In this document: piece after piece, positions 1 through 8,412 of the stretch | Layout of the letters: every line of letters begins with the position of its first letter | How positions within the stretch are numbered: position 1 is the first letter of the stretch | Origin: Thermoleophilia bacterium | GTDB taxonomy: Bacteria; Actinomycetota; Thermoleophilia; Gaiellales; Gaiellaceae | Assembly: GCA_023382435.1 (NCBI GenBank) | Contig: JAHDVS010000031.1 | Coordinates: forward strand, 1-33,556 | Direction: 5' to 3' | DNA length: 33,556 nucleotides | Translations under genes and position numbers: made by a program | The notes under the pieces: model-generated | Seen by the model: only the letters and a program-made list of their open reading frames with translations | What the model was told of the DNA's origin: nothing | Database searches by the model: none

Positions 1-1
1 G

Positions 2-988
2 TGGATCCTCTCCTGCCAGAACGGCACCCTCGACCTGCGCACCGGGAAGCTGCGCCCGCACGACCCCGCCGAGCTGATCAGCCTCGGGTCGCAGATCCCC
101 TACGAGCCGAGCGCGACCTGCCCACGCTGGTAGCGGTTCCTGCTCGAGGCCTTCGCCGACGATCCGGAGCTCGTCGAGTTCGTCCGGCGCGCCATCGGCT
201 ACAGCCTCACCAGGGACACCCGCGAGCATGCCCTCTTCATCTGCCACGGGGCCGGCGCGAACGGCAAGACCACATTCCTCGAGACCGCCAAGCGGCTACT
301 CGGCGGGCTCGCCGCAACCGCCGCCTTCGACACCTTCGCCAGGGCTCGCGGCAACCGAGGCCCCCGCAACGACCTCGCCCGCCTCCACCGTGCCCGACTC
401 GTCGCAGCCGCCGAAAGCGGCGAAGGCCGACGCCTCGACGAAGCCACCGTGAAGCAGATCACCGGCGGAGACACCGTAGCCGCCCGCTTCCTGTACGGCG
501 AGCACTTCGAGTACCGGCCCGCGTTCAAGCTCTGGCTCGCGACGAACCATCGGCCCAGGGTTGACGGCGACGACGACGCGATCTGGCGACGCATCCGCCT
601 CATCCCCTTCGGCGTCAGCTTCCGCGGCCGCGAAGACCGCGAGCTCGAACAGACCCTCGCCGCCGAACTACCCGGCATCCTCACCTGGGCCGTCCAGGGC
701 TGCCTCGACTGGCAGAGCGACGGGCTCGGCAGCGCCGGCGCCGTCGACGAGGCCACGGCCGAGTACCGCCAAGACGAGGACGTCCTCGGCGCGTTCCTCA
801 CCGAGCGGTGCGAGCTCGGAGCCGGCCACGAGACCGCACCCGCCGACCTCCGCACCGCCTACGAGACCTACCGCGTCGAACTGGGCGAGAAGCCCGTCAC
901 CGCGAGCATCCTCGGAAAGCAGCTCTCCCGCCGCGGTATCAAGCGCGGCGGGCGCAACAGCGTCTACCGGGGGCTCAGGCTGCGATGA
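2..988 (+). pseudogene. P4-type phage primase/SF3 helicase C-terminal part, interrupted by an amber codon
   Basis: Replication protein of the P4/D5 family: an SF3 helicase that unwinds DNA at the element's origin, normally fused to an N-terminal primase. Here the 5' part is off the window. In frame 2 the protein is open from base 2 except for TAG at 131-133, in the context CPRW*RFL, where relatives typically have a sense codon (commonly Glu). Beyond it lie Walker A (GAGANGKTT, 248-274), the Walker B region (LVAAAESGEG), motif C (KLWLATNHRP, about 527-556), an arginine-finger segment (IWRRIRLIPF) and a D5 C-terminal winged-helix region. Everything on both sides is intact and in frame, so a single substitution (for example GAG to TAG) explains the break. 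The first canonical start after the stop is GTG at 449, after Walker A, so a restarted protein would lack the ATP site. It could instead be read by amber suppression or be a sequencing error. Confidence 0.85.
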
Positions 989-1000
989 CGATCCAGCCAT

Positions 1001-1090
1001 GTACCCGGGTACATGACGTACTTTCGGTAACTCGCCTCGCGTGCGCGCGGAAGAGGGGAGTTACCGATTCTGCCTCCCGTACCCGGGTAC
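1001..1090. repeat. 90-bp symmetric dyad: two inverted copies of a palindrome plus 10-mer
   Basis: A 12-bp palindrome GTACCCGGGTAC lies at 1001-1012 and again at 1079-1090. Between them TCGGTAACTC at 1024-1033 faces its reverse complement at 1058-1067. The two halves have the same spacing (11 bases) and a common centre at 1045.5, so the whole is an inverted repeat of a composite module, palindrome-N11-10mer. The first palindrome extends to 16 bp (999-1014). It lies in the 182-base gap between the primase and the HTH gene. By position it could be the element's replication origin, an operator of the HTH protein, or a recombination site; the sequence alone does not decide. Confidence 0.75.
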
Positions 1091-2349: not shown

Positions 2350-2385
2350 GTCGGCCAGCCTACCCGGACGGGGACGGGCCGGTGA
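2029..2385 (+). CDS. Alternative plus-strand reading between the terminase genes, hypothetical
   Basis: A 118-aa frame whose GTG start overlaps the small terminase stop (GTGA) and whose TGA overlaps the large terminase GTG, which is the arrangement of the other genes in this unit. The protein has no recognisable domain, is Gly/Cys-rich at odd positions, and lies antisense to the more protein-like N-terminal part of the minus-strand frame. It is kept only because of the perfect start/stop coupling; only one of the two readings is likely to be real. Confidence 0.35.
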   Translation: MRLRTLPGVGIASEAAGGGVELLEPGVPGDEVAAQCGCDAFDLAPAELDRLCGCLRERVLERVRDLALSGIVNWVEGEAVPEPRGEPGCAAGVERVGPATDEHGRAHVGQPTRTGTGR

Positions 2386-3857
2386 GACACCTTCTGCCGC
2401 GGGTCGGGCTAGTCGAGGCGTGCGCTGACCCGGCCCTGTTCGGGGTCGACCTGTGGCCGAGGCAGTGTGACCTTCTCGCCACCGTGGAGGCGGGCCCGCG
2501 GCTCCACGTGTGGGCGCTCGGCCGCCGGTCTGGGAAGACGACGATGGCGGCCATGGTTGCCCTGTGGGACTGCCTGCTCCGCCCGGAGCTCGGGGCGAGG
2601 GTGCGCCCGGGGGAGGTCAGGCATGCGGTCGCGGTCGCGACGAACCACCGTCAGGCGCGGCTGTTCGTGCAGGCGGCCCGGTCGATCGTAGAGCGCTCCC
2701 CGCTGCTCGCCGAGCTGGTCGAGCAGGCGACCGAGGACGAGATCACGTTCGTGAACGGGACGGCGCTGTCGGCGTTTCCGTGCTCGTCCAGGGGCGCCCG
2801 CGGCTGGCCGATCTGGACGCTCGTCATGGACGAAGCGGCGCACTTCCTCTCGGAGACAGAGGGGCCGCAGGTGGCCGAGCGGGTATTCGAGGCGTTGGTC
2901 CCGTCGACTGCGCAGTTCGGGGCGGCGGCGCGGGTGATCGTGTGCTCGACGCCGTTTGGGGTCGGAAGCCTGTTCGCGACGCTGTTTCAGCGGGCGTGGT
3001 CGGGGGAACTCGAGGATGCGCTGGCGCAGCATGCGACCACAGCGGAGATGAACCCAACGATCGACCCGGGTTTCCTGGAGCTGGACCGCCAGCGTGACCC
3101 GGAGAGCTTCCGCGCCGAGTTCGAGGCGGAGTTCCTGGCGGGCGGGGCAGCTTTCCTCGACCCGGGACGGATCGCCGATGCGCTGGCCGACCGGGCGGAA
3201 CTCGCGCCGGGCCAGGTGGTCGACTGCGTGGCCGGCCTCGACCCGGCGTTCTCCTCGGACCCGTTCGGGCTGGCGATCGTCGGGCGTGACCCGGCTGACT
3301 GCCGCCGACTGGTGCTCGCGCTGGCGCAGCGCTGGCGGCCGCCGCGTCGGAGGGCGGGGTCGTTCGAGGAGCGTCGGACGATCGAGGACGCGGTGCTGGA
3401 CGAGGTGGCGGAGGTGTGTCGCCGCTACCGGGCCCGCGCGGTGACGGACCAGTTCGCAGCGCCGGCGGTGGTCAGCTATCTGCGCCAGCGCGGGGTGGCC
3501 GTCCGGGTGGAGCCGATGACCGCCCAGGCGAAGACTCAGGCGTACGTGGAGCTCCGGGCCCGGTTGAACACGAGCTCGCTCGAGCTGTATGAGGAGTCGG
3601 TGTTGCTGGGGGAGCTGCGGCGGCTGCGGTCACGGTATGCGGCGGGCCGAGCGTCGGTCGTGAGCCCACGGGCCGGTGACTCGCACGGGGACATTGCGCA
3701 GGCCCTCGCGCTAGCAGTGTTCGAGCATGACCGGTTCGGGCCGCGGCTGATCGAAGGGGACGACGGGGAGGGTTCGTTCCTGGCCGGCGAGGTGGTCCCG
3801 GCCGGGTGGTCTGCGGGGCTGGACGGGCCGATGCCCGGGTACGGGGCCGTCCTATGA
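2382..3857 (+). CDS. Phage terminase large subunit
   Basis: A 491-aa DNA-packaging motor with ATPase and nuclease domains. Walker A is GRRSGKTT at residues 47-54, Walker B is TLVMDEAAHF with D150-E151, and the coupling motif VIVCSTP follows near residue 188. The C-terminal half begins with CVAGLDPAFSSDPFG, where the Asp of GLDP is a likely RNase H-fold nuclease metal ligand, and a late DSHGDIAQALALA motif supplies another acidic residue. The length fits the family. In a phage it docks on a portal, but no portal gene follows here. The GTG start sits at the end of the preceding plus-strand frame; the stop overlaps the next gene (ATGA). Confidence 0.88.
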   Translation: MRHLLPRVGLVEACADPALFGVDLWPRQCDLLATVEAGPRLHVWALGRRSGKTTMAAMVALWDCLLRPELGARVRPGEVRHAVAVATNHRQARLFVQAARSIVERSPLLAELVEQATEDEITFVNGTALSAFPCSSRGARGWPIWTLVMDEAAHFLSETEGPQVAERVFEALVPSTAQFGAAARVIVCSTPFGVGSLFATLFQRAWSGELEDALAQHATTAEMNPTIDPGFLELDRQRDPESFRAEFEAEFLAGGAAFLDPGRIADALADRAELAPGQVVDCVAGLDPAFSSDPFGLAIVGRDPADCRRLVLALAQRWRPPRRRAGSFEERRTIEDAVLDEVAEVCRRYRARAVTDQFAAPAVVSYLRQRGVAVRVEPMTAQAKTQAYVELRARLNTSSLELYEESVLLGELRRLRSRYAAGRASVVSPRAGDSHGDIAQALALAVFEHDRFGPRLIEGDDGEGSFLAGEVVPAGWSAGLDGPMPGYGAVL

Positions 3858-5588: not shown

Positions 5589-5632
5589 TGGCCGACGTCA
5601 GGCTGGGGCGATTCCATGGAAGGGGGACGTGA
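5588..5632 (+). CDS. 14-codon coupled reading frame directly before the integrase (leader-like)
   Basis: ATG at 5588-5590 starts a 14-residue frame, MADVRLGRFHGRGT. Its TGA at 5630-5632 shares one base with the integrase ATG. It begins within the stop of the preceding gene and has an AGAGGAGCG purine stretch upstream. Ribosomes finishing it would land on the integrase start, so it could set integrase translation. It may also be a chance frame. Confidence 0.4.
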   Translation: MADVRLGRFHGRGT

Positions 5633-6897
5633 TGGCAAAGCGCACGAACATCCGGCGTCGCGGCCGGTCGTGGGTCGCGTACTACCGCGTCGACGGGCGG
5701 CAAGTCTGGCGGTCGTTTCCGACGCGCGAGCAGGCGGAGCTGCACCTCGCGCAGGCCCAGGTTGAGAGGGCTCGCGGCGAGCTTCGAGCGCCGGCCCGAG
5801 TCACGTTCGGCGAGGCGCTCGACGAGTGGCTCCGCCACGGCGAGTTCGAGCGGGGACTCAAGCCCTCGACGATCAGGGACTACCGGTCGTGCCTGGAGCG
5901 GTGGCTCCGTCCGGCGTTCGGCGAGCTTCGGCTCGACGCTGTCACGGCCTCGATGATCGAGCGGTGGCGCGCGGAGGCGATGGCCCGGGCGAAGAAGGAC
6001 GAGAGGCTTCCACGGCGCCAGGCCGACAAGCTGATCGCGATCCTCCACGGCGTCTTCGAGCGGGCCCGGAAAGCGTACGGCTTCCCGCGGAACCCAGCCG
6101 ACGATATCGAGCGCTTGAAGGTCAGCTACTCGGGCCGCTTCGACTTCTACTCGCCGGAGGAGGTGTGGGCGCTCGTCCGGGCCGCCGCATCGGAGCAGGA
6201 CGGCGCCATCTTCCTGACCGCAGCGTTCACCGGGCTCCGGCGCGGCGAGCTCCTCGCCCTTCGCGTCCGGGATCTCGACTTCGCAGCGGAGGCGATCCGG
6301 GTAGAGGGAAGCATCGACATCACGGGCGAGCGCGGCACCCCGAAGTCCGGTCGTACGCGAAGCGTGCCGATGGTGCCCGAGGTCGCGCAGACGCTCGCCA
6401 GGCTGCTCACGCGGGAGCAGCACACCGGTGGCGACGACCCCGTGTTCGTCGGCGAGTCCGGCGGATACCTCGACGGGTCCGCGCTCCGCCGCCGCTTCAA
6501 GATCGCTCAGACCCGAGCGAAGCTCAGGCCGCTCCGGCTCCACGATATGCGCCACACGTTCGGGAGCCTCGCCGCGAGGAAGGCGGAGAGCGGCCGCGAG
6601 CTCCAGGAATGGATGGGCCACGCCGACCTGAAGACGACGGCGCGTTACACACACTACCGGTCTCGCGGCGGTGAGGCCGCCCGGCTGGCCGAAGCGTTCA
6701 CGCTCGGCAAGCCCCGACAGGCCGAAGGAGACGGAGCCCGTGGAGGTCGCCACCCACTGATGCCTGCAAGCGGACTGCAAGCATTCGCCCTTCGCACGGA
6801 CGCAGCCGGGTTCCGCCCGAACGCCGGCCGTGAGGGCGTTTCCCCTGCTCGCGTTGCGTTTCGGCGGAACCCGGCGGAACGCGATGACGGCCCTTGA
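5632..6897 (+). CDS. int: Tyrosine recombinase / phage integrase
   Basis: A 421-aa site-specific recombinase that joins the element to the chromosome at tRNA-Gly. An N-terminal arm-binding domain (RRRGRSWVAYYRVDGRQVWR) is followed by a SAM-like core-binding domain (about residues 55-150) and the catalytic domain. Catalytic residues visible are R203 (TGLRRGEL), H304 and R307 (LHDMRHTF), H330 (MGHADLKTT) and nucleophile Y339. The start ATG has AGGGGGA upstream. The last about 60 residues lie past the conserved domain and have unusual composition. In this stretch the DNA carries the 21-bp repeat and another inverted repeat, so it probably doubles as att-arm DNA. The stop is only a few bases from the tRNA fragment, the usual int-att layout. 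Confidence 0.95.
   Translation: MAKRTNIRRRGRSWVAYYRVDGRQVWRSFPTREQAELHLAQAQVERARGELRAPARVTFGEALDEWLRHGEFERGLKPSTIRDYRSCLERWLRPAFGELRLDAVTASMIERWRAEAMARAKKDERLPRRQADKLIAILHGVFERARKAYGFPRNPADDIERLKVSYSGRFDFYSPEEVWALVRAAASEQDGAIFLTAAFTGLRRGELLALRVRDLDFAAEAIRVEGSIDITGERGTPKSGRTRSVPMVPEVAQTLARLLTREQHTGGDDPVFVGESGGYLDGSALRRRFKIAQTRAKLRPLRLHDMRHTFGSLAARKAESGRELQEWMGHADLKTTARYTHYRSRGGEAARLAEAFTLGKPRQAEGDGARGGRHPLMPASGLQAFALRTDAAGFRPNAGREGVSPARVAFRRNPAERDDGP
6762..6782. repeat. 21-bp repeat, right copy (exact inverse of 1446-1466)
   Basis: Exact reverse complement of the sequence at 1446-1466. It lies in the unconserved tail of the integrase gene, about 120 bases before the attR core, and contains two direct heptamers CTGCAAG-CGGA-CTGCAAG. 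Position and structure fit an integrase or excisionase arm-binding site; this role is inferred. Confidence 0.7.
6806..6874. repeat. 12-bp inverted repeat between integrase tail and attR
   Basis: CCGGGTTCCGCC at 6806-6817 faces GGCGGAACCCGG at 6863-6874, with GGCGGAAC repeated once more at 6873-6880. It lies within 30-95 bases of the attR core and may belong to the arm region used by integrase or host factors. Confidence 0.55.
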
Positions 6898-6901
6898 CGG
6901 C

Positions 6902-6943
6902 TTGCCATGCAGAAGGTCGAGGGTTCGAGTCCCTTCATCCGCT
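6902..6943 (+). other. attR: 3' half of tRNA-Gly(GCC)
   Basis: The bases follow tRNA numbering from the anticodon loop to the discriminator: loop TTGCCAT (6902-6908, anticodon GCC), 3' anticodon stem (6909-6913), variable loop of 5, T arm GAGGG-TTCGAGT-CCCTT (6919-6935), acceptor CATCCGC (6936-6942) and discriminator T. The 5' half is missing: upstream DNA does not pair with the anticodon or acceptor stems. This is the usual remnant left when an element integrates in the anticodon loop and restores the tRNA at its other end. The CCA end is not encoded. Confidence 0.88.
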
Positions 6944-6950
6944 CCTCGAG

Positions 6951-6974
6951 AAAGCCCCGCTCAGGCGGGGCTTT
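6951..6974. terminator. Bidirectional hairpin terminator
   Basis: AAAGCCCCGC (6951-6960), loop TCAG, then GCGGGGCTTT (6965-6974): a perfect 10-bp stem. It ends the tRNA-Gly transcript on the plus strand and overlaps the amidase stop codon on the minus strand, so it can end both. Confidence 0.88.
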
Positions 6975-8412
6975 CTGTCACCCGGCCCTCTTGCCGCGGA
7001 TCGATCGGTAGGAGAGAAGCCAGGCCCACCGCCTCCTCGAAGGCAGCCGCTGCCGCGAGCAGATCGGCGTCGCAGCGTGGACGGCCGACCAGCTGGAGCC
7101 CGACGGGTCGCCCGTCGGAGGTGAAGCCGCAGGGAACCGAGATCGCAGGGCACGATGTGAGCGTGATCGCGGAGGTCACGCGTAGCCACTCGACGTAGTT
7201 GTGAAAGACGGTTCCCTCGAGCTCGCGGATCCAGCGGGTCTCGACGGGGAACGGCGCCACGCAGGCGGCGGGGCACGCGAGCAGGTCGTAGCGCTCGAAG
7301 AACGCGGCCACGCGGTGGTAGATCGCCCCGCGGGCGCGTTCGGCCCGGCCGACCTCCTCGGGCTTCAACCGCAGGCCCGCCTCCACGTTCCAGACGATGT
7401 CGGGCTTCAGGCGATCGCGCATCGTCTCGTAGAGGGGCCCGAGGTCCGCGACGAAACCGGCGGCGCGCAGGGTCTGGAAGGTCTCCGGGGCATCACCCAG
7501 ATCAGGGCAAGCCTCTTCGACAGCGGCGCCGAGATCGGCGAAGCGGGCGGCGGCCGCGGCGCACAGCCCGCGCACCTCGGGATCGACCGGAGAGATGCCG
7601 AGATCGGGGCTGAACGCCACTCGGCGGGGAGCGCGCCGGCTTGCCGCGGCGGCCGCGAACGGCTCCGCCGGCGCCGGCAACGACAACGGGTCGGCCGGGT
7701 GGCGGCCAGCCATGGCGTCGAGCATCAGCCCGACGTCGGCGACCGTCCGGGCCATCGGGCCGGCCACCGAGAGCGTGTCGAACGGCAGCTCACGCGGGCC
7801 CGTCGCGACGTACCCCGGGCTCGGACGCAGGCCGACGACGGAACAGAAGCTCGCCGGCGTGCGCAGGCTGCCCCCGAGATCGGAGCCGGTGGCCAGCCAG
7901 GCCTGGCCCGTCGCGAGCGCGGCCGCGGACCCCCCGGAGGAGCCGCCGCAGGTGAGCGCGGTGTTCCACGGGTTGCGTGTCTCGCCGAGGACCTCGTTGA
8001 ACGTGTTTGCCCCGGCGCCGAACTCGGGCGTGTTCGACTTCGCAAGCACGATCGCCCCGTTCGCCTCGAGCCGCTCGACCAGGAGGCTCGAGCGCTCCGG
8101 CACGTGATCTGCGTAGATCGGCGAGCCGTAGGTCGTGCGCACGCCCGCCACATCCTCGAGGTCCTTGACCGCGATCGGCAGTCCGGCGAGCCAGCTCGGC
8201 CCCGGGGCGTCCGGAGGTTCGGCCATCAGCCGGCGGGCACGCTCCCGGGCACGCTCGGGGCAGAGCGTCGGCAGCGCGTTGAGCTGCCCGTCCGTGGCCG
8301 CGACCCGGCCGAGCGCGGCATCGATCAGCTCGAGAGGCGACAGCTCACCGTCGCGCAGGAGCCTCACGGCCTCCCGCGCGGGCAGGGAGATCGGGTCGGA
8401 GGACGCGACCAC
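6961..8412 (-). CDS. Amidase, amidase-signature family
   Basis: A 483-aa hydrolase of the GatA/amidase-signature superfamily that cleaves amide bonds of an unidentified substrate. The Ser-cisSer-Lys triad is present: Lys in GLPIAVKDLEDV, cis-Ser in CGGSSGGSAAALA, nucleophile Ser in GSDLGGSLRTPA. There is no GatB/GatC gene nearby, so a stand-alone amidase is more likely than the tRNA-amidating enzyme. Start GTG at 8412 has a TAGGCT box 9 bases upstream and no Shine-Dalgarno, fitting a leaderless or near-leaderless message. Divergent from the tryptophanase-family gene with 63 bases between them. The stop lies inside the terminator hairpin. Confidence 0.9.
   Translation of the reverse strand: MVASSDPISLPAREAVRLLRDGELSPLELIDAALGRVAATDGQLNALPTLCPERARERARRLMAEPPDAPGPSWLAGLPIAVKDLEDVAGVRTTYGSPIYADHVPERSSLLVERLEANGAIVLAKSNTPEFGAGANTFNEVLGETRNPWNTALTCGGSSGGSAAALATGQAWLATGSDLGGSLRTPASFCSVVGLRPSPGYVATGPRELPFDTLSVAGPMARTVADVGLMLDAMAGRHPADPLSLPAPAEPFAAAAASRRAPRRVAFSPDLGISPVDPEVRGLCAAAAARFADLGAAVEEACPDLGDAPETFQTLRAAGFVADLGPLYETMRDRLKPDIVWNVEAGLRLKPEEVGRAERARGAIYHRVAAFFERYDLLACPAACVAPFPVETRWIRELEGTVFHNYVEWLRVTSAITLTSCPAISVPCGFTSDGRPVGLQLVGRPRCDADLLAAAAAFEEAVGLASLLPIDPRQEGRVTESPA

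What the first reader, a model, noticed from the sequence alone, without database searches (positions are those of the whole stretch)
1001..1090. Perfectly symmetric 90-bp composite dyad between primase and HTH gene
A 12-bp palindrome and a 10-mer appear on both sides of one centre with identical 11-base spacers of different sequence. Conserved blocks with free spacers indicate selected protein-binding sites. Lying beside the replication gene, it may be the element's origin or a lytic/lysogenic operator.
Basis: partly seen in the sequence, partly recalled or inferred. Interest (0 to 1): 0.65.

Follow-up and report, generated by a model that had tools for sequence, protein, structure and literature searches.

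The report
Replication origin beside phage primase-helicase gene
The mirrored 90-base stretch is most likely the replication start site of an integrated phage-like element, read by the element's own primase-helicase, whose gene ends 12 bases before it; relatives of that enzyme in many phages have the same layout in the same place with a different address sequence, so the kind is known and this member is new.

Summary
GTACCCGGGTAC (1001-1012, 1079-1090) and TCGGTAACTC/GAGTTACCGA (1024-1033, 1058-1067) are concentric about 1045.5; 33 of 45 positions pair, the best centre in the window, and 40 shuffles reach at most 29. The 12-mer occurs nowhere else in the 2.73 Mb genome.

It is best explained as the replication origin of a 13.8-kb prophage-like element in a tRNA-Gly gene, bound by its D5/SF3-type primase-helicase. 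Across 85 non-redundant relatives of that primase, the stretch just 3' of the helicase domain holds inverted repeats, mostly ~9-bp iterons, at 54 loci, against 10 of 331 control segments (P = 3e-35). Iteron letters differ between elements while the layout recurs. Streptococcus phage Sfi21, which encodes a relative of this primase, has an annotated 302-bp 'origin of replication' at exactly this place with the same anatomy. The nearest relative (68% primase identity) shares the inner ~62 bp but has different outer repeats. The predicted fold matches SaPI5 primase-helicase and ASFV C962R.

The HTH-operator reading is weak: an HTH gene follows the array in 4 of 85 loci. The window primase carries an in-frame TAG, so this copy may be dead. 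A new member of a known kind.

The parts
1001..1012 (.). left outer recognition block GTACCCGGGTAC (perfect palindrome; can be read as GTAC-type iterons)
   Evidence: unique to this locus in the genome
1079..1090 (.). right outer recognition block GTACCCGGGTAC
1024..1033 (+). left inner box TCGGTAACTC (inside TTTCGGTAACTCGCC)
   Evidence: shared with L034
1058..1067 (-). right inner box GAGTTACCGA (reverse complement of the left)
1038..1049 (.). central alternating pyrimidine-purine tract CGCGTGCGCGCG, candidate opening region
   Evidence: such tracts are longer than in shuffles in this position family-wide
1001..1090 (.). whole inferred origin of replication
134..988 (+). C-terminal part of the D5/SF3-type primase-helicase (DUF5906 plus winged-helix-like tail); in-frame TAG at 131-133 separates it from its N-terminal part, which lies on contig C26
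1170..1559 (+). HTH_17 protein, neighbour gene
   Evidence: adjacent only in window, L034, L016 and L019
1556..2032 (+). small terminase subunit (weak matches)
2382..3857 (+). large terminase subunit
5632..6897 (+). tyrosine integrase of the element
6900..6976 (.). right attachment site: 77-bp copy of the 3' part of tRNA-Gly plus downstream hairpin, identical to C26:30764-30840

Best explanation
The 90-bp dyad is the origin of replication (cis site) of a ~13.8-kb integrated phage-like element. The element's primase-helicase (Toprim-like/D5_N/DUF5906 with a C-terminal winged-helix-like tail) binds the outer inverted blocks with its tail and loads as two facing hexamers over the inner boxes. It opens the central alternating pyrimidine-purine tract and starts bidirectional theta replication once the element is excised. 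Shown here: the anatomy; its constant position 3' of this primase family; iteron letters that differ between elements; the annotated Sfi21 origin with the same anatomy; the primase fold. Inferred: binding, the double hexamer, opening, and activity of this copy, whose primase reading frame is interrupted by a TAG.
For: (1) In 85 non-redundant loci with this primase, the 450 bp after the helicase domain hold at least 8 inverted 8-mer pairs in 54 loci against 10 of 331 control segments (Fisher P = 3e-35). The strongest inverted-repeat window lies 0-400 bp after the domain in 57 of 85. The window itself scores 12 pairs against 2.8 in shuffles. (2) The arrays are mostly ~9-bp direct repeats facing inward, with spans of 83-125 bp in the GC-rich loci; the window spans 90. 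(3) Sfi21's annotated 'origin of replication, 302 bp non-coding region' starts at the 3' end of its primase gene (A1 profile E 2.8e-25) and holds such an array around an A+T tract; it is the top window of 16.7 kb. (4) phi105, GMA4, Findley and Adephagia show it too. (5) The window primase matches SaPI5 primase-helicase by sequence (E 1e-17) and fold (Z 23.7), and C962R (Z 25.1). The C962R tail resembles the P4 alpha origin-binding domain (PMC10516667). SaPI origins lie directly downstream of the Rep gene, consist of iterons and are read by the Rep C-terminal domain; Cch2 of SCCmec binds direct repeats downstream of its own gene through its C-terminal domain (PMC7581432). (6) The inner ~62 bp is conserved with L034 (score 33 vs 13.6 in shuffles, P 0.001).
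Against: No replication or binding was tested. The window's outer blocks are palindromic, not clean 9-bp tandem iterons. About a third of relatives lack a clear array by this measure, and Arthrobacter phages Liebe and Sue2 show none near the primase. Iteron similarity did not track the primase C-terminus once core similarity was removed (partial r 0.05, P 0.125). The window primase has an in-frame stop.
Confidence: 0.85

Rival explanations
1. The dyad is the operator of the downstream HTH_17 protein (a lytic/lysogenic or replication switch).
For: The HTH gene is adjacent here and in L034, L016 and L019; palindromes are typical operators.
Against: The array is present at dozens of loci without such a gene next to it; no sigma-70-like promoter was found in 900-1250, although GC-rich actinobacterial promoters may be missed; inverted iterons with an opening tract fit an origin better.
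Confidence: 0.07
2. It is a packaging (pac/cos) site for the terminase encoded just downstream.
For: terS and terL follow directly.
Against: In Sfi21 the annotated cos lies at 40722-40736, about 6 kb from the array, which lies at the primase end; the array follows the primase in many loci whatever comes next.
Confidence: 0.03
3. It acts as RNA: a hairpin that ends or attenuates the primase transcript.
For: Strong fold, -55.9 kcal/mol, z -5.4.
Against: No T tract or terminator match; relatives keep repeated iterons with unequal copy number on the two sides, such as L034, rather than one continuous stem; in many AT-rich relatives the centre is a TATATA tract.
Confidence: 0.04
4. It is only a relic: a former origin in a decayed prophage that no longer replicates (compatible with the best explanation for what the site is, but not for what it does now).
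For: In-frame TAG in the primase; no capsid or tail genes recognised between terL and the integrase.
Against: The dyad blocks are still letter-perfect; satellites normally lack capsid genes; the TAG could be an assembly or strain artefact at a contig break with a 55-bp overlap.
Confidence: 0.35

Closest known systems
Streptococcus thermophilus phage Sfi21 ori (NC_000872, 34487-34784)
   Same: Directly at the 3' end of a primase-helicase of the same broad family; inverted short repeats around an opening tract.
   Different: Different iteron letters (AGTTACTTAGTTACT), an A+T centre instead of CGCGTGCGCGCG, and extra repeats outside.
SaPI Rep and SCCmec Cch2 origins (PMC7581432)
   Same: Iterons directly downstream of the initiator helicase gene; read by the helicase's C-terminal domain; proposed to load as two hexamers. 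SaPI5 primase-helicase is the close structural match.
   Different: Staphylococcal satellites and cassettes; Cch2 binding needs the direct repeats, not the inverted repeats; their sequences were not fetched here.
Phage P4 ori/crr with alpha protein
   Same: Primase-helicase with a C-terminal winged-helix origin-binding domain that binds short iterons (own knowledge; domain likeness via PMC10516667).
   Different: P4 uses two separate sites, ori and crr (own knowledge); here one site was found, with no second GTACCCGGGTAC on the C26 half.
Papillomavirus E1 / SV40 T-antigen origins
   Same: SF3 helicase that recognises paired sites and assembles a double hexamer; the core fold matches E1 (Z 12.4).
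   Different: The DNA-binding domain is N-terminal there (PMC7581432); eukaryotic viruses.

Membership tests
Iteron origins of D5/SF3-type primase-helicases (Sfi21/SaPI kind) | Initiator is a D5-type SF3 primase-helicase | tested here: met
   D5_N and DUF5906; SaPI5 by sequence and fold
Iteron origins of D5/SF3-type primase-helicases (Sfi21/SaPI kind) | Site lies directly 3' of the initiator gene | tested here: met
   Primase ends at 988, dyad starts at 1001; family-wide position
Iteron origins of D5/SF3-type primase-helicases (Sfi21/SaPI kind) | Repeated short recognition units on both sides in inverted orientation | tested here: met
   Two concentric inverted block pairs. A 9-bp register of GTAC/GTAA units (1009, 1018, 1027; 1082, 1064) is visible but was not tested statistically
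Iteron origins of D5/SF3-type primase-helicases (Sfi21/SaPI kind) | Easily opened central tract | tested here: inconclusive
   Alternating pyrimidine-purine tract of 12 at 1038-1049; enriched family-wide (P 0.001), but not A+T-rich here
Iteron origins of D5/SF3-type primase-helicases (Sfi21/SaPI kind) | Initiator tail binds the repeats | not testable with these tools
   Only an indirect test, inconclusive
Iteron origins of D5/SF3-type primase-helicases (Sfi21/SaPI kind) | Site supports replication in cis | not testable with these tools
   Needs a plasmid assay
Repressor operator of an HTH gene | Dyad co-occurs with the HTH gene | tested here: not met
   HTH relative within 1.2 kb downstream in 4 of 85 loci, whereas the array is at 54
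Intrinsic terminator | GC stem followed by a T tract | tested here: not met

The most novel reading that the evidence does not exclude
D5-type phage origins are two-part modules: a conserved inner core (TTTCGGTAACTC-like boxes and an alternating pyrimidine-purine centre) that the helicase opens, and outer 'address' repeats that are exchanged quickly between related elements, perhaps because elements that share an address interfere with each other. The window and L034 would be a case where the core stayed and the address changed.
Probability: 0.35. Interest if true: 0.55.

Novelty: new member of a known kind. Interest (0 to 1): 0.42.

Why it matters
It gives a rule for finding origins in the many phages and satellites that carry this primase (1,343 records in the phage collection alone): look just 3' of the primase gene for inverted ~9-bp repeats. 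It also suggests that origin specificity changes fast while the core stays, which can be tested by swapping origins and primase tails in laboratory phages such as phi105.

Tried and rejected
(a) Exact-pattern scans of viral contigs for the 12-mer pair or the 12-mer plus GGTAAC: one unrelated pair (L005) and scattered chance hits, so the letters themselves are not widespread. (b) Covariation of iterons with the primase tail: inconclusive. (c) The motif TTTCGGAAACT as a general inner box: at least 10 of 11 matches in 7 of 85 loci vs 4 of 417 controls, but the motif came from the same data, so this counts as weak. (d) A universal central motif: none; AT-rich loci have TATATA, GC-rich ones CGCG-like tracts. 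(e) The array measure misses imperfect arrays (L016, L018 and L019 look arrayed by eye but score 1-3). (f) Open-access text of the original Sfi21 and SaPI origin papers and the SaPI5 structure paper was not held. (g) SaPI sequences were not fetched because they are virulence islands.

Full report
Observation. About the centre 1045.5, 33 of 45 positions pair, the best value of any centre in the window; the next is 29, and 40 whole-window dinucleotide shuffles reach 26-29. GTACCCGGGTAC occurs exactly nowhere else in the 2.73-Mb genome.

Setting. The primase gene at the left edge is the C-terminal part of a phage primase (PHROG 6088, E 1e-84; DUF5906) and ends at 988. Its N-terminal part (weak Toprim-like, D5_N) is at the end of contig C26, whose last 55 bases equal the first 55 of the window. 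C26 also carries the intact tRNA-Gly; a 77-bp stretch made of its 3' part and the bases after it is repeated at window 6900-6976 next to the integrase. The element is therefore about 13.8 kb: left-end genes, primase, dyad, HTH_17, terS, terL, small genes, HTH, integrase. No capsid gene was recognised among the proteins scanned. An in-frame TAG at 131-133 interrupts the primase; the relative L034 has glutamate there.

Relatives. The nearest primase relative (L034/L014, Solirubrobacteraceae, 66-68% identity) and many others have, just 3' of the primase, inward-facing arrays of short repeats with element-specific letters: AGTGACGGC, GGGACAGAT, TTGACCGAT, AACCCTTGG, GGTGGCACT and so on. I measured this on 85 non-redundant loci drawn from viral contigs and actinobacterial genomes: at least 8 inverted 8-mer pairs in 54 of 85, against 10 of 331 control segments of equal length from the same loci (P 3e-35). 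The strongest inverted-repeat window lies 0-400 bp after the helicase domain in 57 of 85 loci, and another 10 lie at 400-800.

Link to an annotated origin. Phage Sfi21's record marks a 302-bp 'origin of replication ... phage inhibitory sequence' at 34487-34784, overlapping the 3' end of its primase gene. That primase belongs to the family (profile E 2.8e-25), and the stretch contains CTTTAGTTACTTAGTTACT ... GTAACTAAGTAACTAAAG around an A+T tract. phi105, GMA4, Findley and Adephagia have comparable arrays; Liebe and Sue2, which carry their own DNA polymerase I gene, do not.

The protein. A model of window residues encoded by 134-985 (mean pLDDT 90) matches ASFV C962R (Z 25.1), SaPI5 primase-helicase (Z 23.7), poxvirus D5 and papillomavirus E1; sequence agrees. 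The literature reports that the C962R tail resembles the P4 alpha origin-binding winged helix (PMC10516667), that SaPI Rep reads iterons directly downstream of its gene with its C-terminal domain, and that Cch2 binds such a site through its C-terminal domain (PMC7581432).

Core and address. Between window and L034 the outer repeats differ completely, but the inner ~62 bp aligns (TGACGTACTTTCGGTAACTCGCC...GTTACCGATTCTGCC against TGACGGCACATTCTGTAACTCGCC...CTTTCCGAATCTGCC), score 33 against 13.6 for shuffles, P 0.001. L016 did not reach significance. The central CGCGTGCGCGCG is an alternating pyrimidine-purine run; such runs are longer at this position than in dinucleotide shuffles across the family (9.8 vs 8.4, P 0.001), and in AT-rich phages take the form TATATATA. 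Opening at this tract is inference.

Alternatives. An operator for the HTH_17 protein is unlikely, since that gene follows the array in only 4 of 85 loci. A terminator lacks its T tract, though the RNA would fold strongly (z -5.4). A packaging site is disfavoured by Sfi21, where the cos site is far away. A partial Mantel test of iteron against primase-tail similarity was inconclusive, so which protein binds is inferred, not shown.

Verdict. A real, selected feature: with about 85% confidence the replication origin of a phage-like element, of the Sfi21/SaPI kind. This copy may be defective. The family-wide layout is a useful rule, and the core/address split is the most novel reading.

Noticed in passing
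window 131-133: In-frame TAG inside the primase; the nearest relative has glutamate at that position. Either a disabled primase or an assembly/strain artefact next to a contig break.
   Followed up: partly
window 1-55 and C26 end (L152); window 6900-6976: Contig C26 ends with the first 55 bp of the window, and a 77-bp tRNA-Gly repeat flanks the element, giving a 13,826-bp integrated element with terminase genes but no recognised capsid genes: a possible actinobacterial satellite or a decayed prophage.
   Followed up: partly
L152 4565-5296 (-) and 5232-5531 (+): Two adjacent ADP-ribosyltransferase-like (PF03496) reading frames on opposite strands at the left end of the element, next to a gene with a sigma-70 region 2 match (5925-7652, -).
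   Followed up: no
L005 7595-7671: The only viral contig with two GTACCCGGGTAC this close (starts about 65 bp apart); they sit at the 3' end of an unrelated AAA_25 (RepA-like) helicase gene, perhaps a convergent origin using the same letters.
   Followed up: partly
L128, about 450-900 bp after the helicase domain: A dense inverted array (30 pairs) further downstream of the primase than usual; L097 is similar (23 pairs).
   Followed up: no
L155, L158 (Arthrobacter phages Liebe, Sue2): Phages with this primase plus their own DNA polymerase I gene lack a clear array at the primase end, suggesting another origin place or type.
   Followed up: no
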